DNA of 64,000 nt from Nereocystis luetkeana (Eukaryota > Sar > Phaeophyceae > Laminariales > Laminariaceae): contig JARUPZ010000010.1 of assembly GCA_031213475.1 (NCBI GenBank), forward strand, positions 3,623,970 to 3,687,969, read 5' to 3'. Shown here one piece after another: positions 1,651 through 64,000 of the stretch. Under the pieces are notes generated by a model. It had not been told where the DNA came from. It ran no database searches and saw nothing but the letters and a program-made list of their open reading frames with translations. The translations under genes were made by a program, and so were the position numbers. The first letter of the stretch is position 1. Every line of letters starts with the position of its first letter.

Positions 1651-1978
1651 ATTGGTAGACTATTATTATCTGAGGATTTGCAGCATTGTTCATTTTCCAT
1701 TCCCTGCCCAAAATCAACAACAACGGCGCGAAAGTACGCATACTTCCAACCTGAGGCCTCGCTCATTTCGTCCGATATCCGACACTCTCTCCAGCAAGCT
1801 GGGCCATCGCGCCGCTCGCCAAATTACCGATTTATGTTTGTTGTATCAATGGACAGTACATACACGTACGAGGTAACCAGCAACGTCGCTCTTCGTACCT
1901 AATTATATTGTTGATGTCGAGTGTTCTGTGACGATGGCGTTACCGGTAGTTAAACATGATCGGTTTCATATCAACAGA

Positions 1979-2374
1979 CAAATCGGAAAATGGGAACGAA
2001 GCCTAAAATGAGAACCAAGCCGTATCTATCTCCAGAACCATGTGGTGTATCAGATAACCAAAATGATCCTGCGAAACCCCTTGGCCAGCCCTGTGAGAGG
2101 AGCTCGTCAGAACGGTCATGCTCCATCTCGTGCCTTCGGGTGGGCGCAAAAAGCGATATACGCTGGCTCTATTATGATTTCTCTAGATAGATGCTGGCTA
2201 CCGCGGCGATGCCGAGGACTTCCAGCCTGAGCGACAGCTCATTCGAAGGCTGCTGTACAGCCCCACAGGACTGTCAACTTTTTTTCTTGGAGTTGTACAC
2301 AAACAATTGGTTTGCTTTCTAACAAAAAACGTCCGTTCTCATTTTTTGTTTCGTTCCCATTTTTCCGATTAGTC
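1979..2374 (+). mobile_element. Type C element, copy 1 (about 400 bp)
   Basis: It has terminal inverted repeats of about 24 bp: AACAGACAAATCGGAAAAAT at the left and its near complement at the right. The interior has no convincing ORF. It is nearly identical to copy 2 except for small indels such as tetranucleotide duplications (TATCTATC, TAGATAGATG). It is absent from the right arm, so it inserted after the duplication. Confidence 0.75.
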
Positions 2375-2541
2375 TGTTATTTCCCATAGTAACAACCCCA
2401 TATTACACTCCAAGGACACCCGGTAGCATATCCAGGCGTACCGTACATATATATCCCGACGGTCAGGACACCCGCTCCCTCGTTCGGTGTTAGTTGTTCA
2501 TCTTGCAGAGCGGAACCTATCATCATGTGTACGTATTACTC

Positions 2542-2638
2542 TTAACCCCTTTAGAACCGCTGTCCCGTTTGGGGACAAAACTACTTGAAATTTGACTGGA
2601 TTGTCCCCAGAACGGGACTGCGGTTCTAAAAGGGTTAA
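2542..2638. mobile_element. Family B palindromic element
   Basis: Near-perfect palindrome with ends TTAACCCCTTTAGAACCGC and CGGTTCTAAAAGGGTTAA, short AAATTTGA loop. It can fold as a long hairpin. Not at the same site as the right-arm copy at 63662. Confidence 0.85.
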
Positions 2639-2702
2639 CAATATCTCCCCTTCCTTCACTCCTTTTTTTCACCCGTCATAAATATTGTGATACGTATGTA
2701 AC

Positions 2703-2837
2703 CCACAACTCTTTGTCTTCTGCTATGTTACGACAGAACAACGACAAAAATGCCGGTGGTATTTTAGACTTTAGCGCGTCGACAGCGCAATCAATCACAA
2801 GCATCACCGCGTCCATCCCGAGGCTTATAAACGAGAA
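2703..2837 (-). CDS. Outer conserved coding block, left (partial, unknown)
   Basis: On the minus strand this reads SLGMDAVMLVIDCAVDALKS then KIPPAFLSLFC. The right arm partner at 63280-63420 (+) reads GLEMNAMMFVRDCAIDAVKT then KIPPASSASSFC. Changes fall mainly in codon positions 1 and 3, are conservative, and the one indel is a whole codon, which supports coding on this strand. Exon ends are not clear. It would belong to a second gene pointing outward from the palindrome. I do not recognise the family. Confidence 0.4.
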
Positions 2838-3995
2838 CCTACATATTATTGCTGCGTACCAGGGCACGTGTAGCGAAGCAATTATATTGTGGGGGTCCTC
2901 GTAGACGCGCGACAACGACAGAGAGGACACCGGTCGGTGCAAGGCGGCGTTAGTTATTATTGCAAGAACGTACAAATACTATCAGCTGTTAGTTTCTGGG
3001 TCGCTTCTGCTTGGCGTGTGTTCGTCAACACGCGTCGACGTACGTAGTCTGGCTCTTTGTAGTGTTTCTCATCATTGGGCCACCCAAGAAGCTTGGCGCA
3101 CTAGCAAGGTGGGGTTGAATACACGTTTATATTTATTTCTCTTGCCATCCGACAATGTGCAGCATGATCTTCAACGTGGATCACCCATAACTTTCCCGAA
3201 AGAAGAAAACCTCGGAAACAAATGGAAACCCATGCACCAAGTCTACCTCCCTTCCGTGCCAACTTTCAGCTTGCCTACTCTATTTTTTGCTGTATTTGTT
3301 CCTTCCTTCTCATTACGTTCTATCCATAAATCCTAAACTGCATCCAAGCTCCATCCCCACGCCATCGGTGTGGGTCTGTCGTCCCTCCCTCCCCTGTTCC
3401 TTCTTCCTTCTTGGCGGTCCCTAAGCTGAAGCTTGAAGCTCGACACCCTGACTGAGGCTCCTCATAGTACGATTGACTGCAGTAGTACTACTACATACAG
3501 TACGTCGTCAGAGGTATTGACAGTGCGCATTTAACACAAAAAAAGAAAAAAAAAAAATGAGACAACTTCCTCAGCTAGCTGCAATGTATGGTCGAAAAGT
3601 TCCTCGAGCCTCATGTTTTGCCGGCAGCGTACGCGTGTGGTCCAGCAGTGCAGGGCACCCGATAACAGAAGCGGCGAAAAGGAAGCCGGGGCTGACGTTT
3701 ACAAGAAAATAATATATCGGGAGGCGTTATGGGGAAGTTAGTATAGAACGCGCCCTCTCTCAAGTAAGGAACCCAGCCTGGGTGAGAACTTATGTTTCTT
3801 GTTACCTGGTACTCTGTAGTAGGTGTCCTGTAACACGCAGGGAAGGAGAATTGGTTCGATGAAGTTAGTGGTATTCGATGAATTATGTCAGCTTTTTCAT
3901 TTTGAATGAATAACGCCCTGCACATTGTCAGAAGGCAAATAATAATAAAAAATAAAAAAAATGATAATAATAGCTGTACGTTACGTGGTATTCAT

Positions 3996-4102
3996 ATTAC
4001 TGGGGGCCATAGGTAATAGGACCTATGGTCGACATAAAAACCTATATATTTAACCATTTTAACTAACAATATTTGGTCCTATGAACTATGGTCCCCCGTA
4101 AT
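3996..4102 (-). mobile_element. Family A MITE
   Basis: About 107 bp with ATTAC(G/T)GGGGG...CCCCCGTAAT inverted ends flanked by T/A, AT-rich centre. It is left-arm specific. One end is slightly degenerate. Confidence 0.85.
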
Positions 4103-4497
4103 AGTACCAATTTACCGTACGAGCGACGATTTTAGAGCAGGTGCACCCAACCATATGTATTCGGTGTCTTCAAGGCCCTTCGCTTGCGACTTTTGGGGCA
4201 ACACACACTTTGCCGGGAGACAGGCCCCAATCACGCCAGATGTATGCAATGCCCTTGATCTCTCACTTACTTGTGGCTGTAAATTGCGACGCGGACGTTG
4301 CCCTTCAGTGCGCCCCAAGCGAGGAGGTATACGTACATATCTGCTGTGGGTAATTGTCGGTACAAAACGCGTGGCTTTTGGCTCAAGCCCCTCAATGCGC
4401 TACTACTACGGTCAGGGAGGTATGTGGTGGCTGATACTGGTTGGTGTATTAGTCCAGCCAAAAATGCCGGCACTTCTCCTCGTCTCCTATTTCCTAT

Positions 4498-4894
4498 AAA
4501 CAGACAAAACGGAAAAATGAGAACGAAACAAAAAATGGGAACGGACGTTTTTTTTTAGAAAGCAAACCAATTGTGTACAACTCCAAGAAAAAAAGTTGAC
4601 AGTCCTGTGGGGCTGTACAGCAGCCTTCGAATGAGCTGTCGCTCAGGCTGGAAGTCCTCGGCATCGCCGCGGTAGCCAGCATCTAGAGAAATCACAATAG
4701 AGCCAGCGTATATCGCTTTTTGCGCCCACCCGAAGGCACAAGATGGAGCATGACCGTTCTGACGAGCTCCTCTCACAGGGCTGGCCAAGGGGTTTCGCAG
4801 GATCATTTTGGTTCTCTGATACACCTCATGGTTCTGGAGATACGGCTTGGTTCTCATTTTAGGCTTCGTTCCCATTTTTCCGATTTGTCTGTTT
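4498..4894 (-). mobile_element. Type C element, copy 2, inverted
   Basis: Same element as 1979-2374 in the opposite orientation, 2.1 kb away. It is flanked by TATA on the left and TATA on the right, a possible target duplication. It is non-autonomous by appearance. Confidence 0.75.
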
Positions 4895-5569
4895 ATACCT
4901 GTATATCAATTATTTAATAGCGATATGATACGGATGGAACACCAGCACGGCACCATGCATAATGTTAAGCTCTTTCTTTGTACCCTAAGACATATATCAC
5001 CTAGTATATGTTCCAGGCGACATTAAACTCATACGTGTAGGAATGGGCAGTAGTTTAGCGCCTGGTGTGGCCATTGTCTTATACGGCAGCCTATGTAATA
5101 CACGTGCCACTGTGTACCTAATCATAGGCACCGTTTGAATAACATAGTAGTAGCATACACACGTTTCTTGTGTCTAGAGACTAACGGGTACACCATTTTG
5201 AAGTGTTTGAATGTGATGTTATTACCAGTACGTACCACGTGTGGGTATATTCGGGCTCATCACAAGCCTCAAACAAGCCACCAGCGAAATAACCTTTTCT
5301 AGGCTAGCTTTTCAGGGCACCTTATCATGTCACGAAAATTCTTTTGGACTGCAATGAATGGCGTGGTGATGAAACGTCGGCAAGAAGTCGGCATATCCAT
5401 TCGGAAAGGAAGGGGGGCTGCACTCTTGGTATGTATGAGATTTGGGAAGTTTCGGGTCTGAGTGATTGCAACCTTCCATGATTTCAAGTGAAAGGATTCT
5501 AGGTACATACCCTTTTCAAATATATATTATACCAGGTATGTATGTATGTTGAATGACAGCAGTAGTAGT

Positions 5570-5676
5570 ATTACGGGGGACCATAGTTAATAGGACCTGT
5601 AGTATACATAAAAACCTATATATTCAACTATTTCTAATAACAATATTTGGTCCTATTAACTATGGCCCCCCGTAAT
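5570..5676 (-). mobile_element. Family A MITE
   Basis: Intact inverted ends; the arm pair reads AATAGG / CCTATT. Left-arm specific. Confidence 0.88.
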
Positions 5677-5813
5677 AGTAGTTGGAGTAAGCACCGAACA
5701 TTTTCAAACAGCAGTAAAAATGTGTGTAAGCCGCAGAACCTTTTCGTGGCACCATCCTTGACCAAGCTCGACAATGCATATATATGCCATTGCGTACCTC
5801 GGGAAGGATATGC

Positions 5814-5908
5814 AACCCTTTTAGAACCGCAGTCCCGTTTTGGGGACAGACCACTGAATTTTCAAGTAGTTTGTCCCCAACACGGGACTGCGGTTCTAAA
5901 GGGGTTAA
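5814..5908. mobile_element. Family B palindromic element
   Basis: Same structure, about 95 bp, with ends AACCCTTTTAGAACCGCAG and TAAAGGGGTTAA. Left-arm specific. Confidence 0.85.
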
Positions 5909-8411
5909 GAGTGTAGGGTTTGCCGCCGAGCACGGTTCCTCACCCCCCGCCCGCCCCCCCCCCCCCGGCCCCCGCCCCGAAGCGAAAAAACGATCCCTAT
6001 CCAATCTTCTTAGTAGTAAGTAGCGTCCCTCGGAGATAGATGGAGCCTTGTGTTCTTGTTACGAAATACACGGGGGGGTTTTTTTCTTTCGTGGGCCTCG
6101 TTTTCTGTAGCGGTGCCATTCAGAGGTATACGGATGATCAATCATCAATCAGTTTGACATGATATCTCGCATGCCACAGCGCGACCCTCCCGAGGCGGCT
6201 GGTCTGCCAACCATGTTCACGCCATTGGTCCGAGACACGCCCCCGTAAGCCAATAGATTGATCTCTCTCGTCTCAGCCAGATTCCCTTTTCGCGCTCGAC
6301 GGAGGAGCACTTTCGTTTGTGTGGTCGCGGTTTGGTCTTGTCGCCGCAGCGAGCTCGCTCGTCGGCGCCAGCCTCTTGTGCGAGCGTCGTCCCAAGCGTG
6401 CCCCGTATTGAAGTTTTTCGTTTGCCATCTATCAATCAAGGTCTGCCGTGCGTAGACAACGTTTAGCCGAGAGAATACACGATATATTATGTCTGGCCCT
6501 GCGTGCGGCCTTCCCTACCGCAGTGGCCCGGAATGGGTTTGTGTACATGCTCTATAGACTGCACGTAGAACAACTGCCTGTTTCTGGCTGTTTTTTTTTA
6601 GAATGTATTTATTTTTGATTCAACGTGCAAGTAAGTGCTTTTTTCGTCCACGTCGTTTGTGTGTAACCTGATTGTCTTCAGCTCGATGGCCTACTCCTGT
6701 CGTAGTTCGACGGAACTACAGCAGTTGCCATTTTTTGGTTGTCGGTCGTTTTTCTTCCTATTATTATCGAGGTGATCAAGCGCTCAATGATAGTGCAGCT
6801 TCCTGGTACGACACAGGTAGGTATATACAAACGCTTGATCGCAGCTTTTTTTAGGATCCATTCATACGATACGAAGTAGAATAATAGAACTTCCCTTTCT
6901 GTGTTAAATCATGTGGGCACAAATACATCGGCACCCCCGGCTCGTAAGAGTTCCTCTTCCTTCTGGTGTTCCGCCTCTCCCTCTGGTGCTTAGCCTCCAA
7001 CTGCAGCGCTCCCAATATACCAACACGCTCGTACGTAGGCCCCAGTCAGCCCAGGTTTAGGGAGGGGTGCTCTACGACGATATTCCAAAGAACGCCTTCC
7101 TAGGAGACACCGATTCAGGCTTCTTTGTCTTTACCACTGATGATGGTGCTCCATTGTAGTCCGGTTAAGCGCAGCATGGATACCACGACAAAATAATCGC
7201 GGGAACCGAAGGAACACACAATTAATTTAGCTTCAATGGGCGTCTACAGTAGTAGTACATAGAGCGAGCGATGCATTTCGTTTCGTTAGGCCGGTGATTG
7301 CACCGAACACGGAAAGCCCCTGCAGTACTCGTGGTGTGGTTCACATACGTACATCGCCGTTCATGCTCGTGCACTAAAAATCAAAAGACGCGAGGAAGTA
7401 TCACCCCGGTTTGAGCCTTCGTGGCCCGTGTGCTTGCATCACACGGTGCAGGATTGATTGCGCCTTTCCTCCGTATGCCCTCAAGTCTCTCGGGGGGTTC
7501 TACTCCTCCCCTAGTGCGAGGCTGTTGCGGTACCGTGCCTGGCATTCCAGCGATAACAGCGCTTCTAAGTGAGACAGAAGAAGGCGGCTCGCGCAACAAG
7601 CGCGGACGTGGTCCTTCCTTAGCAACTCGCCACTCTCTATCCTCAACCTGTCCGCCGCGGTCCTTGCTGCACAACCAATGTGCAAGCCGGGGCGCTTATT
7701 TCTACACTGACTGGGAGCCGGGACCTCCCCACCTGTACAATGGAGGCGTGAGAGCTCGTTGTGCAAACACTGAACCATTTACTCAGTAAAACCCTCAAGC
7801 TGTCGGCAGCCTCTCACTTTGGTGTGCCTAACGGTGTGCTACATAGTAGTAGTTCGGCGTCTCCGCAAGGATTTGTTGACACCTACATTTTTATTTCTAT
7901 TTTTTTAATCATCCCTTACTTTCACTTACTTTCCAGCCTACCTCGTAGGAGGTTTTACCCACGGCGACCCTCTGGACAAGCCGTGGTCACAGGTGTCTAC
8001 CATTCCCCCTCCCGGTACGTGCCTTGCATTTTTGTGGCGCATAGGGTTCAGCATTCCCGCTGCTCGTCGATTTTCATCGAATGTAGCCAACTCACGCTCT
8101 TGCGCTTTCCGCTAATCAATTTCATTGTACAAGGAGGATCTCCCTGTTCCCGCCAGCCTGACGACTTTTACCGAAACAAAAAAAGGACACGTCAGCCGTG
8201 ATAATATCGAGAATTGCGTCGAAGTTCCTGTTCCCGCCAGCTGCGTGGATTTGTTCTGCAGTACGTACGTACAGTAAGGGCAAGTTATCTTCCGCTGAAA
8301 TTGTAGACCGTCGGCGAATACTTTGCATCGACTCCCGCACGAACGCCATTATTGAGCGTCCGTCACCTGCTCGATTGCCGCCGTAAATTACCCGTCTCCG
8401 GAACAACAAAG
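5900..8411 (+). other. Upstream conserved region, left; 5' exons not resolved
   Basis: This region aligns with 58.53-60.95 kb in blocks (6150-6480, 6680-6790, 7400-7700, 8120-8410). The best-conserved short block, 6682-6720, contains an ATG (6686) reading MAYSCRS in both arms but soon stopping in the right arm. It probably holds the promoter and first exon(s) of the left gene, but no exon pair with conserved frame and donor could be found. Confidence 0.35.
7660..7905 (+). repeat. Dispersed repeat D, left copy
   Basis: Contains TGCACAACCAATGTGCAAGC and CACTTTGGTGTGCCTAACGG. Similar GGTGTGCCTAAnGGTGTGC ends occur near 37697, 40010, 50885 and 58870. The 58.86-59.05 kb copy is its arm partner. 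Confidence 0.45.
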
Positions 8412-8510
8412 GCCGCCAAGGGTCCCTACCTGGGCCGTCAAAACAGCGCCAACGAGACGAAGTGGTCGCACAACATCCTATATGTCTTGGAAACAGGATC
8501 AGTTGATCAG
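8412..8510 (+). CDS. Left gene, first recognisable exon
   Basis: This exon gives 33 codons reading AAKGPYLGRQ then WSHNILYVLETGSVDQ, the lead-in to the first repeat. The donor is GATCAG|GTGAGC. The acceptor is an AAG at 8409-8411, inferred because the right copy has a TGA in frame a few codons upstream. The N-S and S-T changes against the right copy are conservative. Confidence 0.72.
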
Positions 8511-11500
8511 GTGAGCACCCTTTTGAGTCCCTGCTTGAGCAGCTTTTTCAATTTGAGATTTTGATTGTTTGTTGATTGTAAGGCTGGATGATAGAGAGGA
8601 TATCCGTCGGGTATCGTCTCTCTACGTTTTACGAACCGACCTGTTTCTTCGTGTGGGCAAGGTGGACAATTATTGCCGGGCATAGACATAGATAGGGGAA
8701 CGTAAGCGGAAACTGTGGGCGATCCTCAAAACAGGAATAAAAAAAAAGGCAGAAGAAATATGAGTGTAGAAGGGTGAATTAAAGCGCCAGCACTTACTTT
8801 TGAGTGATCACGAGAAACCTGACACAACCAGGGCGAAGTAGTCGCGTGATTATCAATACTGCCTCGTCGTATTAGATTACATACTGTACAGTAGTTAAAC
8901 GTTCAAAAACCGCGGCACTCTACCACAGGGCCTTGTTTGTTCCCTGAAACTAGCAACATCGACCCTTCTTGTGCGTGCAAACGTTCTCTCATGTTCGACG
9001 TGTATCTGTTGCTCAGGTGCGGGAAGAGCTCAACGACGGGCTCTTGAACTGCCCGGAGAGTCTCATCTCTCAGAGCATGAAGAAGGAGCACGCTCTCCGG
9101 ACGCCCCTGATGGCCGCGGCGGCTTCGGGAGACTTCGCGATGTTCACCGCCGTGAAGCACGCCGTTGATCGCGCTATCCGTCTTCAAGCGGTAAGACAGA
9201 AGCTTAACGGAGTGTTGGGGCCCTTACTCTCTAACCTCCGCACATGATAAGCTCAATAGATTACCCGGAACACGATATCGAAGAAGTCTGTTCCGGGAAC
9301 CCGACCACTCTCCTTATTATATACCGCTACCGTAGTCCTAACATATATACTATTGGCAGACTATTAGAACTCGACAAATATATTTTCCTGCAGGGCCATC
9401 CCACCGTAGGGGTGCACCAGACGTTCCTCAACCCCTCACATTATTAGGAGCTCATTATCTCACCCGATACAATACTTGGAAGAAATTCGTTTGCGCCACC
9501 CAACCGGCACTTACTTGTAGTATGGGCTATGAAAAATTGCCCTAAAACGAAGATACGAGCAAAAATTTCATCCTATCTACTGGTTCCTCGCTTAGGGACC
9601 TCAATCCGTCAAAAACGTGGGGTGACTCTGACAATCAGTTTTCGTTCAATTTTATCACCATACCCTTCGCACCTACTGTACCTGGGTGGCACGTGTTTCG
9701 TTTGCAAAGGCTGCAGTTAGTTGGTTGCAAGTTATCATAGCCAACCAGGGAGACCGGTGGGGCATACTGCACTGCGCAAGCTAGTTTCATGTTGTAGCTT
9801 TTCCGTTCGAAGTCAACCACATGCATGTGTGAGTTCGATGTTCGGCCCGTCATCCTTTGTGAAGATAGACGAAAAACGATGGTGGGCGCTTCTGTTCTGA
9901 CGCACAGGTGGCCGGAAGCACCCCCCTTCCCCCCCTGCACGATGTGGGCGGGCAAACCTCCTTGTGGAGATATTGAAAAAAGTAGCGCATCATTTACCGT
10001 GCCGAGCTGTCGCCTCATGGTGGGGCTCGTGACATTGTATAACGTCTCCATAAGAACGTTTTTCATGCTCACGTTGATCCAGGAGAGGGATCCCACCACC
10101 TGTCGGTGCACGTAGCGCATGGGGAAGGATTATCTCCGGAGATCCGCGGTCTATCAATAGTCAAGCTGCCAAAGGTTGTTTTTCCCGAACTGTTGGTTGG
10201 TCGGGAGGGGTGGTGGCCTACTAGCCGACCCCGGCGCCGCAACAAGAACTGCCTCTGTATGCGCTGTACCATGCCGTTCGGACGACGTGCGTTCGCCCAG
10301 GAATGAAATATCCTAACAAAAAATTAAAAGTGAACGAACAAGCGCGAGCCAAGCAACCGTGCATGCGTGCGTATATACACATCTCGTCACAATTTTTGCG
10401 TATATCATCAATGTGAAGGTACCGCATGACGATAGATGCCACACCTGCGGTACCGTTGGCAGGTACCTTAAAATACCAAAAAGGTGACCACGAGACAGTC
10501 TAGGAGAGCAGCGACGCCTTCCGTACTTTCTGCGCCGTGAGACGTTCTACGGTAGTATAGTAGGCTCATCGTAAATTTTCCGAGGCTCCTCACTTGAGGA
10601 GCTCCATTTCTCATCCGACAAATGACCTCAGCAAAAATTAAATGGCTTCCCGATGAAATACTCCCCCCATGCCCCAAGTATACAAAAACGCCATTTTTTG
10701 TAACAAGATTGGCGTTCCGACGATTTCGGGTTGACGAGGCCCGTGTCCCAGAAACAAAAAAAGCGGAAATGTGCTACCTCTATCGTAGAAAGCGTCCCAT
10801 GTAGCACCGAGTGCGTTCGCGAAACCAGGTAGATTAGGTTTCGTTGAAGTACGGAAACTACGGGGGTGGGACCATTTATCGAGCACGTGAGAGACACGAT
10901 TTTCCCCCTTGCCGCACCTCACATCCTGGAGCACACTGACGTATGATGCGATGGGGGCACCGTACGTTTTAATGTCCTACCCGTGTCTGTCCGACGGGGT
11001 TCCACTTAAAGGTATTGAGGAATTACGATACCGCTCAAGGCGTGCCTCCTAAAAAATCACAAATAGTTAGTATGAAAGGACACGGTTCGAACAATACCTA
11101 CACGATGGATAGAACGGGGTTCAGAAGCGCGATCCAATGTATTACCGCGAAAAAAAAACCTCAACTGGGGAAGGAGCCGCAACTAAAGTAGGAGACAATT
11201 GAACACACAAAACCCAACGCAGACTGGTGCTACGTACGGCAGGTGGGTGGAGGGGGGGGGGGCGGGGGTATCGTTTAGGCGGTATGCGTCACAGGTTGCT
11301 TAGAGTCACGCAGTCGAGTGGCTACCTTGCCTACAACTAAGATTTGTATCTTTTTATGTTTTTTGTTATGTGGCATTGCGGCATGTACCCGCATGGAACA
11401 TTGTTTGACTACTCTTGGAACCAACACATTATTAAATGAAATGTCCAATTGTTTCATGGGGTACAAAGACACTCCCCCTCGGAGGCACAAGCTCGGTATT

Positions 11501-21437: not shown

Positions 21438-21478
<41 letters not shown>

Positions 21479-31016: not shown

Positions 31017-31047
<31 letters not shown>

Positions 31048-36817: not shown

Positions 36818-36921
36818 TACCCCTTCAACTTTGGACTGCAGTCCTGTTTGGGGGACAAACTACTTAGAATTTGAGTGGTATGCCCCCCAAACAGGACTGC
36901 GATTCTAACAAGAAGGTTTAA
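36818..36921. mobile_element. Family B palindromic element in loop
   Basis: Both stem arms carry the same departures from the family (CCTGTTTGGGGG and its complement CCCCCCAAACAGG), so the changes are compensatory. Confidence 0.8.
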
Positions 36922-41212: not shown

Positions 41213-41410
41213 TCATGTCTGGATTCGACGTTCGGCGCTGTTCAAAGTGGGTGGGTTCTCTGCTGGTACCGGAAGTAGGGCTTTGTTTCTGGTGGTACTC
41301 CACAAGAGCGATTTTGGCCAGACCTTCTTTAGGCTGCTCGACTTTGCGGCAGGTGTAGGCTTGCTTCGATCTTGACGCTTCTTGTGCTCCTTATGCCAGG
41401 CGGCGTGCGC
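41213..41410 (-). CDS. Right gene last exon
   Basis: The exon starts after CCAACTAG| with AHAAWHKEHKKRQD. It encodes 65 basic, Ser/Pro-rich residues ending RRIQT and stops at TGA. I take this as the ancestral C-terminus because the left copy differs by an A-tract expansion. Confidence 0.75.
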   Translation of the reverse strand, partial: AHAAWHKEHKKRQDRSKPTPAAKSSSLKKVWPKSLLWSTTRNKALLPVPAENPPTLNSAERRIQT

Positions 41411-53400: not shown

Positions 53401-56400
53401 TTCGGTCCGTTCCCGACTTGAGCAGCAGCTGGTTCTCAACCTTCGTAGCCCGCACGAATGGAGAGAGAGGATTCGTAGAAGGGGAGGGAGAGGAGGGCCG
53501 TTTCGCTTTCTGGGCGTTCGACTCCCGGACAGTATCGTGGAAGGGCGAGCCTCAAGTGCAGGGCTTCTCTGTCTTCCCGACTCCGAACGTCGTGGGCATA
53601 TACTTCGTATGTCATGCCAGATATCATGCTGTACTATACGAGCTACCGAAGTAGGACGTGATCATCATTGTTTTCCAGCAAACGGATGGTGGTATGACGT
53701 CTGTCCGTGAGTTAACGCCGTAACAACCGCACGATACACGCCCCTTTGCCTCACCTCACTATCGGACAGAGTGGTACGAATAGCTCCAAAGACGGCGTCG
53801 AACAACGCGCTTCTACCCGCGCCGGCCGCGTGCATAAGAACCGTCTTTCCCCGGTAGTCACTGTCCAGCAATCGATCTTGGTCCTGTCGTAAGAGAGGGA
53901 CGCGAGTTTTGCGATACATGCGGCGATCATTAAATACTACTGGTGTTGCCACTCGTGGAGGCGTGGTTCACATCGCGGTAGCACAAATATCACGATGACT
54001 ATCGTAGACCTGCGAGTTAGGTGAACTTCCCGTGAACACTGTAGTTTGGTGATAAAACGGTAGTCAGCCAATGACAACATAACACCCACTCTTAACGAAC
54101 ACAAAACAGCAGTTCGAGACATACCCGTCCGCTTTTTTCTGCATTCAGATGCCACAAAGACGCAGACCTCCGCCGATACCGCACGCAACCCAAGCGTAAC
54201 ACTTTTGGCCGACTACTGTAGTAAGTAGCCGGTGGACGTGTAGGCAGCAAGCTAACAGGTCCAGTGCGGACACGCTAAACAGCAACCGCAGTTGTATAGG
54301 AAAATGAGACAAAAGCATGCTAGGCTATGCTAATGCTTTGTGCTATAAGCAAATATATATACTTCAAAGTATATATATAGGCTTAACGCTACGTACGCGA
54401 TGTGTGATGGCGATGTGTGTTTTCCAAAGCAAGCGATGGGCGCACGAACAACATGCTTCTGCTGGATCTGCCCGGTCCAAACCACCCTTGACTATGTTCT
54501 TGGTGAGGGATACGGCCCAGATGCAAGTGCTATTAAACCTTTCATCAAATGTCCGGCGATACAGACGGGACCGTTTCTACCACGTGCACAGATATAGCAT
54601 GCTCTGTTCTGCTCTCCTTTTCGACAGCGTACGGGGGAACTTCGCACGCCTCCTGCCTGTACGCATGAAGTACAGGCCGTTGACACCAGTACAAAAACAC
54701 AGACGCTGTACTCAGCTAGCTATTGACACGCCAAACATTTCAGTTAGAGCATAGACAGCTTGAAAATACAACTTAGGGTACCTCAGCATGTGAAATCCGC
54801 TCGAGCACGTCCTTCATGATAGACACCGTCCCACTCCCGGCCGCGAGCATCGCCAGCGTCTGGCCCCACTGATCTTTCGCTTCAAGCTGCCTCCTGTTTA
54901 GCTCCAGCACCGGGACGTGTAGCGTCTAACCGGTAGAGCAAAACGCATTGGACAACAACAGTATTGCGCGAGGACATGGAAAAGGGGGAAAATGTGTCAG
55001 TGAAAATTCCCCGATGAACGGTCGATGGCTGCGTAACCCATCCTCGCTTGAGCCTCTCTCAACTATTACGGGGGACCATAGTTAACAGGACCTATGGTAC
55101 ACATAAAAACCTATATGTTTAACCATTTTTACTAACAATATTTGGTCCTGTTAACTATGGACCCCCGTAATAGCTGCGGTGCTGGCTGTAGGAGTGACGG
55201 GCAGTCAGTCAGTCGAGAAACTTGCGCCCGGACTGGTGGTATACGGTCATGGGAGGGGGGGGGTGCGACATATCATTCATTACCGAGCTTGTGCCTCTGG
55301 GGTGAGTGTATCTGTACCTCATTAGGCAATTGGGCATTTAATTAAGTATTGTGTTTGGTCCGAGAGTAATCAAGCAATGTTCCATGGGGAGTACAAGCCG
55401 CAATGCCGGGAAAACATTTAACTTGAAAATCGTAAATCTTAGATGTAGGCAAGCTAGCCACTTGGCCGCGTGTCTCTAAGCGACCTAAAGTACACTGCCT
55501 CGAAGCGACCCCCCCCCCCCCCCCCCCCCCAACCTGCCGTGCGTAGCACCAGTCTGCGTAGGTTTTCGTGTGTTCAATTGTCTCCAGCGATGGTTGTCCA
55601 CGCTATTTTGATTCGTTCGGGATCCTTCTCAAGTTGAGGAGCTCGACACATCTCCGTCGAGCCAAAGAGTTTTTTTTTTGCGAAAAAACATTGGGTTGCG
55701 TTTCTGAACCTCGGTCTAACTATCGTTTACAGGTATTGTTCGAAACAAAACACATTATTTAAATTCTTAAAATGTGATTAATAAGATGGCATGCCTTATG
55801 CGGTACCATACTCCCACCGAGCCCTTTTGTGAAAATCCCGTCAGACAGACACGTGTTGGCCAAAAACAAGGTACCGGATCACGCGTCAATGCACCCCAGG
55901 TGTTGACCCTTTTAGGACCCCAGTCCCGTTTTGGGGACAAATCACTTGGAATTTGACTGGTTTGTCCCCAAATCGGGACTGCGGTTCTAGAAGGGGTTGA
56001 GGTGCGGCAAGCTGAAAATCGCGTCTCGCACGTGCTCCACGCCTGGTCCCATCTCCGTGTTTTTCTCTATTCCAAAGAATACTGAGCTACTTGCCTTCGC
56101 AAAAGTGTTGGGTGTAACTTAGAGCAGAACGTATGGAATGCATCCCCGCTCTCCTAGACTCCCCCATGGTCACGTGTTTTTTTTTTATTACGGTACACGT
56201 GTCGACTGTAGCGCAGGTGCAGTATCCGTCGTCATGCGGTACCTTGACAACGAGGAGATACCCAAACAAAATGCAACGATACAAGTATACACACGCGCAT
56301 GCACGGTTCCATGTCTCATACTCGTCCGTTGACTTCGTTAGGATATGTCATTCCTTGGCGAATGCACGTCGTCCGAACGGCATGGATCAGCGCATATAGA

Positions 56401-58221
56401 GGCAGTTCTTGTTGCGCCGCCGGGGTCGGCTAGTAGACCACCACCCCTCCTGGCAAACCAAAATGTCGGGAACACATACTTTGCCAGCTCGAGTAGTCCT
56501 CGGCATGGATCTCCGGCGCGAATGCCTCCCCACGCGCTGTTTGCACCGACAGGTGGTAGGATCCCTCTCGTTTCTCAATGTGGGCATGAAAAACGTCATT
56601 ATGGAGACGTTGTACAACGTCGCAAACCCCGCCATGAGTCGACAGTTCGGCACGATAAATGATGTGCTGCATTGTTAAACATCCCCACAAGGAGGTTTGT
56701 CCGCCCACATCGTCCAGGGGGGAAGGGGGCCCTCCTGGCCACTGTGTGTGTCGGAACCGAAGCATCCACACTCGTTCTTTTGTCTATCTGCACAAAGGAT
56801 GACGGGCCGAACATCGAACTCACATATGTATTTGGTAGCGTCGAAGGGGCAACCTACAACGTAAAACTAGCCTGCTCAGCGCAGAATATCCTACCGGTCT
56901 CCTCAGTAGGCTGTGATAACTTGCGACCAACAACTGTACCTGGTAGCGTTTATTAACGAAACACTCTTCACGCGGGTACAAGAGATGTAAACAATGCACA
57001 CATCGATGTCCACTTGAGAATCTACGTCTTCCAGGACAGATAGATTCCCGGTCTGTAGGATACCGTCCATGCTGCCGACGGGAGGTCGAAACACTCTGCA
57101 CGATGAAGGACATGTTTCCTGGGTAGGATACACACGTTGCAGATCCTCCACACCATATCATAACGGCAAGTTGGGATCTAGATGAGATGATCTACATGAT
57201 CTAGATCCTGATCTGTTCGGTGTGTGGAACGCTGGGTCTGGCACGATCGAACAATTGAACGAGCACTGATTGCAGTAAAATTTTTACGTTGAGTACCAGC
57301 AGTCTGGAATATATTGAAGGACTAACGGCCTCAAAAAAGCTCGTCCGGGTTGCTGGAACAAGCTTCTTCAGACTGATTTGCCTATTGAGCTTCTCATCTG
57401 AGGAGGTCAGGCACTATGGCACCCCCCATTGCTTTGGCCCTAAACAGACCCCCAAGCTTCTGTCTCACCGCTTGAACGCGGATGGCGCGATCGACGGCGT
57501 GTTTCACGGAGGTGAACATCGCGAAGTCTCCCGAAGCCGCCGCGGCCATCAGGGGCGTCCGGAGAGCGTGCTCTTTCTTAATGCTCTGGGAGATAAGGCT
57601 ATCTGGGCAGTTCAAGAGCCCATCGTTGAGCTCTTCCCGCACCTGAGCAACAAAAAAACGTCGAGCAAGACACGACATCGGCACGCGCAAGAAGAGTCGA
57701 TGCTGTGAGTTTCAGGGAAAAAAAACAAGGATGTGTGGTACGGTACGGAGGGTTTAAGGTTTAACTACTGTGCAGTAGGTGACATAGTTCGATGAGGCAG
57801 TATTAAGACGCACGCGCCTACTTTGAGGGTTGTATCTGGTTTCTCTTGATCACTCTCACGTGTTGGTGGTTTACTACAGTAGCTCTTCTTGGCTCGTCTA
57901 GACGCCTCTGAGAGAGGGTGGGTAAGTAATTCCTCTTCCAGAGGGATAATACTGTAGTGTCGCCTCAACTAAGGTAGACAGGAGAAACGAGGAGATACCA
58001 GGGCACTTGAGCTTGGGACGATATAGTGCACAGGTAGTTTTCCGAACGAGGCTGGTACTCCGTGTCGCCTTTTCAGTGCCTCTACGTCGGTTGTAAGCAG
58101 TGACCAGCTACTACGTAAGCAGACTACTTATGCTGCCTTTTGGTAATCCTGTTTCGTGGATTGTCCACAACTTCCGCCCGCCATATATACATATATAGAT
58201 ACATGCATATATAGATACATG

Positions 58222-58255
<34 letters not shown>

Positions 58256-58531
58256 GCCGGCAACGTTTCACCAACTCGCTTACCCAAGAGAAACGAGTCG
58301 GTTGCTAGACTGCAGACAGGCAAGACACGACGAAGACTCTCCCTGATATCATCCAGCCTTACAAAAAAAAAAAACAATCAGGTCTCAAATCCAAAGAAGC
58401 CGCTCAAGCTGGGGCTAGAGAGGGGCGCTCACCTGATCAACCGTGCCCGTTTCCAAGACATAGAGGATGCTGTGCGACCACTTGGTCTCGCTGGCGCTGT
58501 TCTGACGGCCCAGGTACGGACCCTTAGCGGC
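41213..58531 (-). CDS. Ankyrin-like repeat membrane protein, right copy (5' partial, 13 exons)
   Basis: Minus-strand exons in transcript order: 58531-58433, 57642-57469, 54925-54782, 53883-53755, 53440-53312, 51747-51202, 49387-49259, 48530-48411, 47624-47547, 45470-45316, 43612-43420, 41737-41705, 41410-41213. They encode about 708 residues in one frame and end at TGA 41215-41213. Eleven exons have exactly the length of their left partner; the long sixth exon (546 versus 570 bp) and the last differ. Domain order matches the left copy: ankyrin-like repeats, disordered insert, two more repeats, two or three hydrophobic segments, basic tail. Most substitutions are synonymous or conservative, so this copy looks functional. 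It converges on the left copy across the loop. The 5' end is not resolved: an in-frame TGA just upstream of 58531 shows that the first exon here is internal. No family name can be given beyond ankyrin-like. Confidence 0.82.
41705..41737 (-). CDS. Right gene 33-bp micro-exon
   Basis: Eleven codons (WSCRKYRFASK) lie between CTCAACAG| and AAAG|GTAAGC, protein-identical to the left copy. Confidence 0.75.
42465..42562. mobile_element. Family B palindromic element
   Basis: Ends TTAACCCTTGTAGAACCGC and GGCGGTTCCACAGGGATAA. Right-arm specific, stem partly decayed. Confidence 0.78.
42811..42908 (+). mobile_element. Family A MITE, right-arm specific
   Basis: Inserted in an intron segment that aligns without a gap-filling element to left 24.05-24.15 kb; the left arm is the empty site. 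Confidence 0.85.
43420..43612 (-). CDS. Right gene exon: second and third hydrophobic segments
   Basis: The exon spans 193 bases, after TCCCCAG|, ending WLDK|GTAACG. A nine-base T run inside the Ile-Phe-Phe-Trp stretch keeps the frame. Confidence 0.87.
45316..45470 (-). CDS. Right gene exon: first transmembrane segment
   Basis: The exon encodes NGAFILLLVLTFIAPSLSWA, conserved as a membrane helix. It ends CTAAG|GTGACC in phase 2. The same alternative acceptor nine bases in is present. Confidence 0.85.
45831..45852. other. Perfect 22-bp palindrome
   Basis: CAAGATCTGGT followed directly by its exact complement, in the intron between exons 47547 and 45470. It may be a fold-back or a protein site; function unknown. 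Confidence 0.6.
46445..46550 (-). mobile_element. Family A MITE, shared
   Basis: Right partner of 20207-20297. One terminus is degraded (GAACGGGGGACC); the other reads CCCCCGTGAT. Confidence 0.83.
47547..47624 (-). CDS. Right gene exon: short linker
   Basis: The exon has 26 codons starting KSIAEDEKASTIEAK, with acceptor TTTCGCAG| and donor ATTGTG|GTGAGA. Confidence 0.85.
48411..48530 (-). CDS. Right gene exon: degenerate repeat 7
   Basis: The exon has 40 codons containing LLGVNKEDNNQSIMEAALDL, after AACCAG| and before CTCAAG|GTGCTA. Confidence 0.87.
49259..49387 (-). CDS. Right gene exon: ankyrin-like repeat 6
   Basis: This 43-codon exon has the core DSWGRTILTHAVLSGRVQVF. The acceptor GTATTACAG| sits about 20 bases past a 19-base C tract (read on -), which acts as an extreme polypyrimidine tract. 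Confidence 0.88.
49407..49425. repeat. 19-base G run (C run on the gene strand)
   Basis: Sits about 20 bases upstream of the acceptor of exon 49387 on -. Other runs of 18 or more: 26239-26258 (C), 34152-34169 (G), 40467-40488 (G), 50765-50789 (C), 51888-51905 (G), 55509-55530 (C). Confidence 0.95.
50366..50610 (+). repeat. Dispersed repeat E, copy 2
   Basis: Starts CTCCTCAGTTAAGGAGCTGC, contains CTGACCTGAGCGAAAACC and TTATCGTAGAACGCGTC. Related CTCCTnA...AGGAG ends also occur near 19100, 52990 and 55630. Confidence 0.5.
51202..51747 (-). CDS. Right gene exon: repeat 5 plus disordered insert
   Basis: The exon has 182 codons from VRALVEDTDG to VLWKEQ|GTGAGA. Both ends are strongly conserved, while the Ser/Gly/Pro-rich middle is free to vary in length and sequence, with only in-frame indels against the left copy. 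Confidence 0.86.
53312..53440 (-). CDS. Right gene exon: ankyrin-like repeat 4
   Basis: This 43-codon exon has acceptor CTACGAAG| and donor TCCAAG|GTGCGG. The core reads TDRNLIMLAARGGDQMG; the His of the MHAA motif is Leu here, unlike the left copy. Confidence 0.86.
53755..53883 (-). CDS. Right gene exon: ankyrin-like repeat 3
   Basis: This 43-codon exon has the core DYRGKTVLMHAAGAGRS. Both splice sites match the left copy (TTACGACAG| and GAG|GTGAGG). Seven residues differ, mostly in the second half. Confidence 0.9.
54782..54925 (-). CDS. Right gene exon: ankyrin-like repeat 2
   Basis: The exon has 48 codons with the intact core DQWGQTLAMLAAGSG. The acceptor is CGGTTAG| and the donor is GCTGAG|GTACCC. 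Confidence 0.87.
55065..55171 (-). mobile_element. Family A MITE, shared
   Basis: Right partner of 11603-11709, with the same flanks in inverted orientation and almost identical sequence. Confidence 0.9.
55903..55999. mobile_element. Family B palindromic element
   Basis: Ends TTGACCCTTTTAGGACCCC and GCGGTTCTAGAAGGGGTTGA. Right-arm specific. Confidence 0.82.
56409..56956 (+). pseudogene. Antisense ORF remnant inside second intron, right
   Basis: This is the counterpart of the left antisense ORF. The first part (56409-56678) contains HRQVVGSLSFLNVGMKNV and ends at a TAA where the left copy has TCA. A single-base deletion near 56730 moves the rest to another frame (56672-56956). This copy is therefore broken twice. 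The region upstream stays open further than in the left copy. Confidence 0.42.
57469..57642 (-). CDS. Right gene exon: ankyrin-like repeat 1
   Basis: The exon has 58 codons with core RTPLMAAAASGDFAMF. The acceptor is TTGCTCAG| and the donor is CAAGCG|GTGAGA, closer to consensus than the left copy's GTAAGA site context. Confidence 0.88.
58433..58531 (-). CDS. Right gene, first recognisable exon
   Basis: The exon has 33 codons (AAKGPYLGRQ onward), with acceptor GACGAAG| and donor GATCAG|GTGAGC. Most differences from the left copy are third-position. Confidence 0.72.
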
Positions 58532-58859
58532 CTTCGTCGTTCAGGAAACGGGAAATATGCGGCGGCAATCGAGCAGGTAACGAGCGCTTATTGGCATCCA
58601 TGCGAGGGTCGAGGGCTCGATGCAAAGTATTCGCGGACGGACGGTTCACAGCTCAGCAGAAGATCACTTGCCTTTATTGTACGTACTGCAGAAAAAAAAG
58701 ACGCGGCTGGCGAAAAGAGGAAGCATGACGAAGCTGTCGAAATCACGGCTGACGTGTCATTTTTGTTGTTGTTGTTTCTCTTAAAGTAAACGGGTGGCCA
58801 GGAACAGGGGCCTCGCCCTTGCACGCTGCGGGTGGGAATAAATTCGTGCGGAGACGTTG

Positions 58860-59050
58860 ACCAATGTAGCACACCGTTAGGCGTGCCGAAGTGAGAGGCC
58901 GTCAGCACCTTGTGGGGTCTGCTGAGGACGTTAGTCAGTGTTTTCGCAGCGAGTTATCACGCCTACGTTGTACAAGGGGGGAGGTCCCGTCTACCTGTGT
59001 ATAACTGAGCAAACTGGCTTGCACTTTGGTTGTGTAGCAAGGACAGCGGC
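58860..59050 (-). repeat. Dispersed repeat D, right copy
   Basis: Arm partner of 7660-7905 with TAGCACACCGTTAGGCGTGC and TGCACTTTGGTTGTGTAGC. Present in both arms, so older than the duplication. Confidence 0.45.
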
Positions 59051-59925
59051 AGGGAGTGCTAGGATAGAGGGTGGTGAGTTTCGAAGGAACGAACACGTCC
59101 GCATTTGTGATGCGAGCCGCCTTCTGGCTCACTTGGAAGCACTGTTATTGCTGGAATGCCAGCTACGGTTCCCCAGCCGGCTCGAACTAGGGCGTAGAAA
59201 CCCCACAGAGACTGAGGGCATACGAAGGAAGGCGATCTATCCTGCACCATATGATGCAAACGCACCCGGGCCACGGTGGCTCGGAGCGGCGCGAGAACAC
59301 CTATTGCGCTTTTTTGCTCTTCGTGCGCGAGCTTGCACGGCGCTGCATGTGAACCGTAACAACGAAATCTACAGGGGCTTTCCGTGTTCGGTGCAATCAA
59401 CCGCCTAACGAGACGAAATGTATCGATCGCTGTACTACTGTTTCCTTGTATTCCCGCGATGATTTCCTTGTGCCATCCGTGCTGCGCCGAACGCAACTCA
59501 AACGGATCACTATTATCGGAGGTAACGGCAGAGGAGCGTGACTCGGTGCCTGCTAGGCAGACGTCCTGAGGAACGCCGTCGTTTTGCACCCCTCCCCAGA
59601 CATGGGCTGACCATGATCTACGCGTGCATGTGTGTGTTGGTATACCACCCGTGCTGCAGTCGGAGGCTTGACCCCAAAGAGAGGCGTGCCATCAGAAGGA
59701 AGAAAAAATACGAGCCGGGTGCCAATGCAATGGTGTCAACATGATCAGCGAAAGCAAACGTCTATATATTGTTTTCGTATGAACAGGGTCAGAGCTGTGA
59801 TCAAGTATGTTGTTACTGCTTTGCCCCAGCAGAACGAGGCGCAATATGCAGGCACTATCACATGAGCTGTTCGCGCGCTTGTCGCCACGAGAATGGGAAG
59901 CAAAATGACCGAAAAACGAATAAAT

Positions 59926-60032
59926 ATTACGGGGGACCATAGTTAATAGGGCCTATGGTATACATGAAACCCTATATATTTAACCATTTTTACCAACAAT
60001 ATTTGATCCTACTAACTATGGCCCCCCGTAAT
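59926..60032 (-). mobile_element. Family A MITE with a clean empty site
   Basis: The left arm at about 6725 reads straight through (GCAGTTGCC|ATTTTTTGG) where this copy interrupts the right arm. This is a direct presence/absence comparison. Confidence 0.88.
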
Positions 60033-60633
60033 AGCAACAGTTACTGTGATTCCGTCAAACTACGACAGGAGTAGGCCATCGAGCTGCTGACAATCTGCCA
60101 ACACACAGGCGACGTGGATCAAAAGAGCAACTTTTACACGCTGAATCGCATTTTCCTTCTAGAAGAACTTCAAAAAAGGAAAGACCAGAGATAGGCAGCT
60201 ATGCGTGCAGTCCGTACAGCATGTACCAAAGCCCATTGCGGGCTGCTGCTGCGCCCAAGGCCGCACAACGGCCCGGCACAACCAACCGTGGTTTCTCGCG
60301 GCTGAAGAAAGTTTAGTTGTCAGCGTACAAAAGACCTTGATGGAGGGCGAGCGAAATAGCTTCAACAGGGTGTACGTTAGAAACGACGTTCGCGCAAGGG
60401 ACTGGCGCCGACGGGGCAAGCATGCTGTGGCGACAAACTGGGATCACACGACCGCTTCCCCTTGAGAGCACCCAGAGGGAATCGGAGGGATCAACCCATG
60501 GGGCGAGGGACCGTGCCTCGGAGCTATGCTCTTCACATGGCTGGCAGACCAGCCGCCTGGGGGGAAAGCCTAGCCGTGGAACACGAAACAACACACCGAA
60601 AATGATTGATGATTGATGGTACACGGCCGTACT

Positions 60634-60756
60634 GTTACGGGCGACCTAGCAGTAGGCCAAATATTAATAGTAAAAATAGGGACATAAATAGGGTTTAAAA
60701 TAAAATGTGTGTCTACCGTTGGTCCTACCTGGTATGTAACATGGTCCCCCCGTAAT
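60634..60756 (+). mobile_element. Family A MITE, diverged
   Basis: TTACGGGCGACC start and CCCCCCGTAATA end, with extra bases in the centre. The left arm lacks it near 6130. Confidence 0.72.
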
Positions 60757-61935
60757 AACAGCAGTACCGTCATGGCAGGGCCACGAACGACGAAAAACCG
60801 AATACAGTACGAACATGCAATATGGCTCGCCTTTTGGGGGACGCTCTCGTGTTATCAAGCAATGGGATAACTGAGCTGAGAGAGAGAGAGTGTTCTCGCT
60901 CGGGCTGTCGGGGGAAAAGGCGCTGAAATCGTGCACGGCGTCAAGCGCTATATGCACCACTACTACTGCTGGATATCGGAACCGGTATGATCAAGGATAA
61001 AAGGTACATTTCGATTGCCTCGCCAACTGCGAAAAAGGTACCTCATGTTTCCGATTCGATTGGTGCCTGGTACCAGGTACATAATAAAGCTCATGGTTGG
61101 TCAAGGGTGCTGGTGCCACAATAATTTTTCAAGGCTTAATTTGATTACTACCCTGGTACTCAAAATTGCTGTTGTCGTATATAGGTGTGTGTGTTTTCTT
61201 CACATTAAACCGTTCTTTCTACCCGTCGACATCCAGCACAACCAGTGTCCGTGCCGATTTTCAATCCTAGAAGAGATACAAGTTATGTGGTCACAGAGCT
61301 ACGCCACAGAGATACTACGCTGCCACGTGTGCAGTGTGCACTGCAGTGGGCAATGCAAAGCCATGTCATCGTACTAGATACGACAGGCACGACATACGCA
61401 ATCTATGAAATAGTGAAACGAAAAGAAACAATCAAAGAGGAAACAAAAACAAGGTATTAATGGACAAAATCAAAAGAGAAAAAGAAAAAATATGAAGCAA
61501 AATCTAGGAGAAACAATCTGTCGTGCCCCCCCCCCCGCAGGCGAGGTGGCCAACACTTGAAAAAGAACGAGCTGGAAAAAAGAAAGGAAGAAAAACAAAA
61601 ATGAGAAAAAAACACCACTGCTTGTAAACAGAGTGAGACAAAGAACCTAGGAAAAAAGTAACGAAGGAAAAATAACAAAGGGGAAATAACAGGCAGACCA
61701 AAGCCCAAAGCAGGTGTTTATTGTTGGTGCGCCCAGTTTTCTTGCGACAGCAGCTGTTTTTTTCTTTGAAGTATCCCATTGACCATCTGACAATGGGCAG
61801 CGCTCATTCCAACCATACCATCCACACATTAATTACACGAAGTAGCCATCAGTACTGTATAAAACCCTTTGACTTGAAAACATGGACGGTTTTATTGCAT
61901 CAGTATTTCCTTCTGATTACTGTTGTTGTATTAAT

Positions 61936-62051
61936 ATTACGGAGATCCCTAGTTAATAGGATAAAATAGTACCAGGTACCAGGTATTAGATAAAAATGGT
62001 CAAGTATGTAGGTTTTTATGTACACTCCTATTGTCTATGGTCCCCCGTAAT
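61936..62051 (+). mobile_element. Family A MITE with internal expansion
   Basis: Ends ATTACGGAGATCC and GGTCCCCCGTAAT, with an inserted ACCAGGTACCAGG stretch. Right-arm specific. Confidence 0.75.
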
Positions 62052-63136
62052 AGTAGGGTCATTTTTATGGGAAATTGTTTGCGCCATACGATAGATACCG
62101 TATCGCAGTATCACACTGGGTGATAAAGATAACACACCCCCTGGGACGAATTCAAGGCCTTCTTTCCTCCAAAACATGAGCGGCACACACAAACGAAAAT
62201 AATAGTGGCTTCCGAAAAAATTTCGTCGCGACGGTTTCGCAGACGCATCCCTCGCTGTATTCAGTACGCCCTCCACGTTGTCGAGAAAACCAAACTTTGA
62301 AAACCGTCCGAGGGGGTGTGCTACCTTAAGTGTTATACTGCGGTATTTCTATATACCAGTGTAATTTCAGGACTGACTGCAGTTAGTTCCGTTTCGGGAA
62401 ATAAAATACTACCAGGTAGGAATTTTAGACTGGTTTATTCCCCCATAATAACGGGAACGCAGCCCCAAAAAAGACAAAGTGCCCCCCAAAAAAAAGCCTC
62501 GATTTCTTACTGGTGGCTTGTTTTTGGCTGGTGAGCTCGAATATACCAATACATATTAGATATCTCTCTTTATATATATAGATCTGTAATATATCTATAA
62601 AAATATAATACGGAGATTTCTTCTTGCAGGAATGTTTTGATTGGTCAACAACGTGGGAGCTCATGCTGCACGGTGTCGGATGGCCAGCCTAATAATAATA
62701 GTAATAATTCTGGGGTCGAGGGTTGTTGTTTTTTTCTTTTGATCCCCTGCGCTGCGTACTACATAAAGTAGTACTCGTTCGTACAAAACGTATTCGATTC
62801 CACCTTGCTCCACCCTAGGGTATTTTGCGCCAAGCTTGCTAGGGCGGTTAATTGTTGACAAAACCTCCGTAAAGTAGTACTCGTTCGTGCGAAATGTATT
62901 CGTTTTTCCACCTTGCTCCGCCCTAGGATGTTGCGCCAAGTTTCTTAGGGTGGTTAACTGTTTGTTGACAAAACCTCCGTGAAGAGCAAGACCCTTGGTA
63001 TGTATGTATGTCGACCCGGTCAAATACCTGCTAAACAAAACATAGCCCTGCACCGACCTGTATACGTAATCACTGTGGTTGACGTGTGTACGAAAACCGC
63101 AGCAGTATGTTTCGCTATGCCACAGATGTACACAGT

Positions 63137-63243
63137 ATTACGGGGGACCATAGTTAATAGGACCAAATTTTGTTAGTAGAAATTGGTAAATATATAGGTT
63201 TTTATGTATACCACAGGTCCTATTAACTATGGTCCCCCGTAAT
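63137..63243 (+). mobile_element. Family A MITE
   Basis: Intact ends; AATAGG / CCTATT arms. Lies beside the outer coding block and is absent from the left arm. Confidence 0.88.
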
Positions 63244-63279
63244 AGTACGAGTACGTACGCTCTATCTAGTCTGAAATAC

Positions 63280-63420
63280 TGGGGCTTGGAGATGAACGCG
63301 ATGATGTTTGTTCGTGACTGCGCTATCGACGCAGTAAAGACTAAAATACCACCGGCATCTTCGGCATCATCGTTCTGCGCTATTATTCAGAAAGCAAAAA
63401 ATTGCTGGTTGAAGGTCTGT
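63280..63420 (+). CDS. Outer conserved coding block, right (partial, unknown)
   Basis: This is the partner of the left outer block, read on +, with the shared KIPPA stretch and the DCAxDAxK motif. A family A element (63137-63243) lies just upstream and is absent from the left arm. A possible donor GAAG|GTCTGT follows near 63414. Function is unknown. Confidence 0.4.
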
Positions 63421-63661
63421 GAAGGAGGAGTGGAAGACAATAAACAGGAATATGTATTCCGCTCCGTAAGATGAGCAGCACCCAACGAGGGGGCGGTTTT
63501 CCTGGCTGTCGGGGTATTGACTGTACGCGCGGATACGCCGGTTGGCCCTTTAGTGCCGTGTTAGAGCGTTGTTAGTTTGTTTCAGTGGGAGATGCAACCA
63601 TGCATGAAGGTGAGACGAACACCATCGTCGGGAGGAGGAGCGGCCAACATCAATCAGCAGT

Positions 63662-63765
63662 CAACCCCTTTTTAGAACCGCAGTCAGTCCCGTTTTGGGG
63701 ACAAACTAATTGAAGTTTGAGTGGTTTGTCCCCAAAACGGGACTGACTGCGGTTCTAAAAGCGGC
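63662..63765. mobile_element. Family B element with matched duplications in both arms
   Basis: The left stem reads GCAGTCAGTCCCG and the right stem CGGGACTGACTGC. A four-base duplication absent from other copies is therefore present symmetrically in both halves of the hairpin. Confidence 0.85.
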
Positions 63766-64000
63766 GTTGCAAAGTTCCATAAATAAATATGGTTGCCATC
63801 GGAAGCTTGGCAAGCGGCGCTACGGCTCAGCCTGCTGCTGGAGAGGGTGGAGGGTGTCGGGTATCGGACGAAACGAATGCCGCGAGGCCTTTGGCTGAGA
63901 CGTACGTTGTACTCTCGCACCTTTGTTTTCGTTTGTGGGCGTGCAATGCAAAATGAACACGGTACGTGAGAAATAATAAATACCGAAAACAACAGATGAA

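What the first reader, a model, noticed from the sequence alone, without database searches (positions are those of the whole stretch)
1680..63960. Window-scale palindrome: two diverged arms of at least 24 kb around a 13.7 kb loop
All 13 exon pairs, intron blocks and flanks mirror each other with left plus right coordinates staying near 66.4-67.0 kb. The arms differ by many substitutions and by arm-specific elements, so the structure looks old. Large inverted gene pairs are known from sex chromosomes and other non-recombining regions (established for animal Y palindromes); a similar setting here is only inference. A false join of two diverged haplotypes must also be excluded.
Basis: partly seen in the sequence, partly recalled or inferred. 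Interest (0 to 1): 0.88.

Follow-up and report, generated by a model that had tools for sequence, protein, structure and literature searches.

The report
Old inverted gene duplication in cluster
The window really does read like a mirror, but the mirror is most likely an old back-to-front copy of one gene and its surroundings inside a cluster of at least six related ankyrin-repeat genes in an alga, an ordinary way for gene families to grow rather than a sex-chromosome palindrome or an assembly error.

Summary
The mirror is real. Left 6137-26637 and right 40208-60617 form one inverted, colinear chain of pieces 58-84% identical, far above controls. The window clips it: matching continues outside to about -14 kb and +77 kb, more doubtfully to -15.2 and +91.4 kb. 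The unmatched centre is about 9-10 kb, not 13.7.

Best reading: a tail-to-tail inverted segmental duplication of an ankyrin-repeat gene with two hydrophobic C-terminal stretches. The two copies are the closest pair of at least six on one 12.4-Mb contig, oriented - - - + + - over 275 kb. A third copy, A, lies just left of the window in direct orientation. Synonymous divergence B-C is 0.385, against 0.518 and 0.591 to A; dN/dS is 0.24-0.27. Two mobile-element insertions sit at matching places in both arms and not in A's matching introns.

Falsely joined alleles and a gene-converting sex-type palindrome are both unlikely: the arms are too diverged, and no near-identical copy was found on another contig. 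Patchy exon similarity leaves room for old gene conversion. Ordinary; low interest.

The parts
1..27747 (+). left arm of the inverted duplication inside the window (copy B and flanks); continues left outside the window to about -14.2 kb, perhaps -15.2 kb
   Evidence: colinear inverted matches to the right arm
37162..64000 (-). right arm inside the window (copy C and flanks); 37162-38020 is matched only by neighbour copy A; continues right outside the window to about 77.1 kb, perhaps 91.4 kb
8412..23617 (+). copy B, ankyrin-repeat gene, 11 coding segments examined: 8412-8510, 9017-9190, 11847-11990, 12878-13006, 13321-13458, 14722-15291, 17034-17162, 18030-18152, 19202-19276, 20951-21106, 23372-23617 (both gene ends unresolved)
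   Evidence: open frames, mostly canonical splice sites; Pfam Ank_2 1.2e-13
43402..58531 (-). copy C, mirror paralogue of B: 58531-58433, 57642-57469, 54925-54782, 53883-53755, 53449-53312, 51747-51202, 49387-49259, 48533-48411, 47624-47550, 45470-45315, 43647-43402
   Evidence: 82.5% aa identity to B over 633 codons, dS 0.389, dN/dS 0.24
27850..37161 (.). unmatched centre (loop), about 9.3 kb
   Evidence: two ORFs of 157 and 160 aa there have no Pfam match
28756..32049 (.). imperfect tandem array, period about 550 bp, inside the loop
   Evidence: direct matches, 75-83% identity
11601..11713 (.). dispersed ~110-bp element with ~30-bp terminal inverted repeats, shared by both arms (partner 55061-55173)
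   Evidence: no copy in the matching intron of copy A
55061..55173 (.). mirror partner of the element at 11601-11713
   Evidence: inside the unbroken match 11191-13475 / 53295-55585
20205..20299 (.). second shared element (partner 46440-46552)
   Evidence: inside the match 19855-20541 / 46186-46900
46440..46552 (.). mirror partner of the element at 20205-20299

Best explanation
An old inverted segmental duplication in a growing gene cluster. A segment of about 42 kb or more holding one ankyrin-repeat gene, probably for a membrane protein, was copied next to itself in reverse, giving two convergent genes (B and C), after the ancestor of B and C had split from neighbour A. Shown: the mirror, the cluster, B and C closer to each other than to A, purifying selection between A, B and C. 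Inferred: a single duplication event, the age order, expression and function of both copies, and independent drift of the arms since, apart from possible short gene-conversion patches. The mirror arrangement itself needs no function.
For: Colinear inverted chain with controls far below it. Six copies on C10 at 3.4076-3.6825 Mb in orientations - - - + + -, taking 58 of 65 genome matches (68 of 81 candidates scored). Tree puts B with C (support 69 protein, 63 DNA), the shortest pair distance among the six. dS BC < AB in 99.35% and < AC in 100% of 2000 bootstraps. Noncoding identity 0.55-0.80 for BC against 0.49-0.64 for AB and AC. dN/dS 0.24-0.27. Two shared element insertions absent from A's matching introns.
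Against: Tree support for B+C is only moderate, and the node joining A to B+C has 75 on protein but 24 on DNA, with the long branch C39a beside it. In e5 A-C is closer (aa 84%) than B-C (73%), and in e8 A-B (85%) than B-C (82%). In the e6-e7 intron BC is no closer than AC (0.55 each). BC dS is 0.291 in e1-e5 and 0.442 in e6-e11 (permutation p 0.06), with the same trend in AC (p 0.06) and none clear in AB (p 0.37). The outermost right-arm matches lie beyond a 12-13 kb gap. Reads and expression could not be tested.
Confidence: 0.8

Rival explanations
1. Clustered paralogues whose mirror look comes from several events (separate duplication of gene and upstream blocks, a later inversion, conversion patches) and not from one duplication.
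For: Blocks at 1181-1831 and -12415..-10555 match each other's mirror partners and recur upstream of A; the nearest partner varies by exon; gap in the outer right arm.
Against: One colinear chain holds across the 11 exons examined, their introns and near flanks.
Confidence: 0.15
2. Sex-chromosome type palindrome kept for arm-to-arm gene conversion in a non-recombining region.
For: Gene-bearing inverted arms around a spacer; identity is 77.9-80.7% around 10.9-13.5 kb against 0.55-0.68 in the introns after e5, which could be old conversion.
Against: Arms 58-84% identical, not >99%; a neighbour in direct orientation too; 0 of 15 HMG-box matches on this contig (weak).
Confidence: 0.03
3. Assembly artefact: two diverged haplotypes of one locus joined head to head.
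For: Both arms carry the whole gene and its flanks in the same order.
Against: dS 0.385 and 20-45% intron divergence are far above what alleles usually show (the allelic level is recalled); at least four further paralogues lie in the same 275 kb; arm-specific elements, e.g. at 1969-2378 and 4499-4897; no near-identical copy found on other contigs.
Confidence: 0.02

Closest known systems
Local inverted segmental duplication within a clustered (tandem) gene family
   Same: Neighbouring paralogues in mixed orientation, shared introns and flanks, graded divergence, purifying selection
   Different: Nothing basic; the arms are rather long (about 42 kb or more) and still alignable at dS near 0.4
Mammalian sex-chromosome palindromes
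   Same: Two inverted gene-bearing arms around a spacer
   Different: Those keep arm identity above 99% by gene conversion (PMC8981503 and PMC3723533, starts of abstracts seen in the listing); here 58-84%
Brown algal ROCO genes with one repeat per exon
   Same: Repeat units on separate exons
   Different: ROCO exons are LRR, 72 bp, phase 2 and shuffled (PMC11378527, passages seen); here they are ankyrin exons, most of them phase 0 as read by eye, and they keep their order in the copies compared

Membership tests
Local inverted segmental duplication in a paralogue cluster | Two copies adjacent on one contig, opposite strands, colinear including noncoding DNA | tested here: met
Local inverted segmental duplication in a paralogue cluster | Further paralogues nearby | tested here: met
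   six copies in 275 kb
Local inverted segmental duplication in a paralogue cluster | The pair more alike than either is to the next copy | tested here: met
   over the whole gene; e5, e8 and the e6-e7 intron are exceptions
Gene-converting sex-chromosome palindrome | Arm-to-arm identity above 99% | tested here: not met
   58-84%
Gene-converting sex-chromosome palindrome | Lies in a sex-linked non-recombining region | tested here: inconclusive
   0 of 15 HMG-box matches on C10; sex of the sample unknown
Falsely joined haplotypes | Allelic level of divergence | tested here: not met
   dS 0.385
Falsely joined haplotypes | Half depth in each arm, no spanning read | not testable with these tools
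   no reads held
Exon-shuffled repeat receptors (ROCO-like) | Repeat exons exchanged between positions or copies | tested here: inconclusive
   each exon's best match in another copy is the same-position exon; no dedicated test was made
Ankyrin-repeat proteins | Ankyrin profile above curated cut-off | tested here: met
   Ank_2 51.9 bits, cut-off 27.3, on joined exons of copy B

The most novel reading that the evidence does not exclude
The two arms still exchange short patches of sequence by rare gene conversion, so that an inverted pair of possibly receptor-like ankyrin genes in an alga acts as a slow mosaic generator at an ordinary chromosomal place.
Probability: 0.12. Interest if true: 0.45.

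Novelty: new member of a known kind. Interest (0 to 1): 0.2.

Why it matters
It shows how a mirror seen in a fixed window can be one pair of a larger cluster. The cluster, with copies of graded divergence in both orientations, would be a fair place to study how a repeat-protein family grows in this lineage. It does not bear on sex-chromosome palindromes.

Tried and rejected
Aligning the whole arms with MAFFT was killed for memory; replaced by anchored chains and per-intron alignments. NCBIfam gave two weak families: a bacterial ankyrin effector in 3 of 3 members (18.4 bits against a cut-off of 1400 for the first member), taken as plain ankyrin likeness, and an exonuclease/polymerase model in 1 of 3. 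Two sub-cut-off Pfam matches of the C-terminal part were not used. No PDB chain matches the A-B-C profile at 0.001. Rfam found nothing in the window at gathering scores. tblastx of the outer arms found mainly the dispersed element and short pieces; the best other piece is 37 residues, 84% identical, with a stop in both (68-178 of the window). The PAP2 search did not help to name the organism (1 match). A search for the PDB code of the nearest Rubisco found no paper. A search on inverted duplicate gene pairs listed one paper on a Drosophila inversion, not used.

Rejected: counting matches of the ~110-bp element as mirror evidence (64 places in 264 kb), except where they sit inside longer matches. 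C39b and C10far were left out of the tree because one exon of each was held; C39a had three of the six exons.

Full report
Observation. A self-comparison finds one inverted chain, left 6137-26637 against right 40208-60617, with left+right sums of 66.3-67.4 kb and pieces of 58-84% identity. In one search the mirror orientation gives 64 matches, 34 on the diagonal, 9060.6 bits. Direct orientation gives 41, of which 3 on that diagonal, 160.5 bits; reversed-not-complemented gives none; 3 of 3 single-base shuffles give none. Many of the shorter matches belong to a ~110-bp element with terminal inverted repeats, found at 64 places in the 264 kb examined; they count only inside longer matches.

Context. 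The window is C10:3623970-3687969 of a 465-Mb assembly of 1987 contigs; C10 is 12.4 Mb. With 100 kb fetched on either side, colinear inverted matches continue to about -14.2 kb on the left and 77.1 kb on the right, at 61-74% identity. Further matches at -15.2..-14.4 kb pair with 90.3-91.4 kb, beyond a gap of about 12-13 kb in the right arm, so that outermost part is less sure. Little of the outer part looks coding. The inner matches end near 27.75-27.85 kb on the B side and 38.0 kb on the C side; neighbour A matches C's inner flank as far as 37.2 kb (2790 columns, 65.5%). The unmatched centre is about 9-10 kb.

The gene. Eleven coding segments in each arm are open and a multiple of three long, are bounded mostly by canonical splice sites, and match a third copy A. 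Exceptions: A's e3 donor begins GC; e6 differs in length; e10 is followed by an in-frame TGA in all three copies, which may be a stop or part of a donor; the start of e5 and e8, the edges of e11 and both gene ends are not settled. Pfam gives Ank_2 at 1.2e-13 on joined exons of B. Two hydrophobic stretches near the C-terminus peak at 1.86-2.40 on the Kyte-Doolittle scale in A, B and C, so a membrane protein is likely. The two genes converge on the loop.

The cluster. Searching the own genome with the joined B protein gave 65 matches (68 of 81 candidates scored, so a lower bound): 58 in C10 3.4076-3.6825 Mb, 6 on C39, and 1 elsewhere on C10. By place and strand the 58 fall into six copies, here called X1(-), X2(-), Z(-), A(+), B(+), C(-). 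B is in direct orientation to A and inverted to C. A tree of six exons, all held for the six cluster copies and three of them for C39a, gives X1 with X2, then Z, then A with B and C. B+C has support 69 (protein) and 63 (DNA); the node joining A to B+C has 75 and 24, with the long branch C39a beside it. B-C is the shortest pair distance among the six.

Age and selection. Over 629 codons shared by the three, dS is 0.385 (0.318-0.470) for BC, 0.518 (0.430-0.622) for AB and 0.591 (0.492-0.713) for AC; BC is below AB in 99.35% and below AC in all of 2000 bootstraps. dN/dS is 0.24-0.27. Noncoding identity by segment is 0.55-0.80 for BC and 0.49-0.64 for the other pairs, which is partly near what forced alignment gives (judged, not measured); in the e6-e7 intron BC is no closer than AC. 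Two element insertions lie at matching places inside unbroken B-C matches, and none lies in the corresponding introns of A. This puts the B-C duplication after the split from A.

Results that fit less well. In e5 A-C is closest and in e8 A-B is closest. BC dS is lower in e1-e5 (0.291) than in e6-e11 (0.442), permutation p 0.06; AC shows the same trend (0.459, 0.675; p 0.06) and AB a weaker one (0.459, 0.551; p 0.37). Rate differences along the gene or old conversion patches would both do.

Readings rejected. Alleles falsely joined: the divergence is too large (the usual allelic level is recalled), there are more paralogues next door, and no near-identical copy was found on other contigs (for 2285 bases of the left arm, with 40 of 1191 candidates scored). 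Reads were not available. Sex-type palindrome: mammalian ones keep >99% (PMC8981503) or >99.9% (PMC3723533) identity (starts of abstracts, listing); here 58-84%. Of 15 HMG-box matches in the genome none is on C10; this is weak because the sample's sex is unknown, and the role of an HMG-box gene in brown algal male sex is recalled.

Organism. The Rubisco large subunit of this assembly scores best against a group of PDB chains that I recall as red-type. A brown alga fits the genome size and gene style but is inferred, not shown.

Literature. Four searches on brown algal ankyrin genes, tandem clusters and sex-region palindromes (11 of 11, 15 of 31, 15 of 57 and 2 of 2 papers listed) showed no title or abstract start describing this cluster. 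Only listings were read, apart from passages of PMC11378527.

Odds.

Noticed in passing
window 28756-32049: Imperfect tandem array of about 550-bp units in the loop between the two genes, 75-83% alike.
   Followed up: partly
window 11601-11713 and 63 other places in 264 kb: Very abundant ~110-bp element with ~30-bp terminal inverted repeats, about one per 4 kb; MITE-like (name recalled).
   Followed up: partly
window 1969-2378, 4499-4897 and 105819-106219 (right of the window): A ~400-bp element in three copies, 94-98.5% alike, with short inverted ends; much more alike than the arms.
   Followed up: no
left flank -12415..-10555 and window 1181-1831: These blocks match each other's mirror partners in the right arm and recur upstream of copy A, so the duplicated unit seems to hold an older repeat.
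   Followed up: partly
L050 and many other contigs: 131 matches to the Rubisco large subunit on more than a hundred contigs, probably unmerged plastid pieces in the assembly.
   Followed up: no
C39:1423278-1450003 and C39:2715570-2725801: More distant relatives of the gene (43-58% identity) on another contig.
   Followed up: partly
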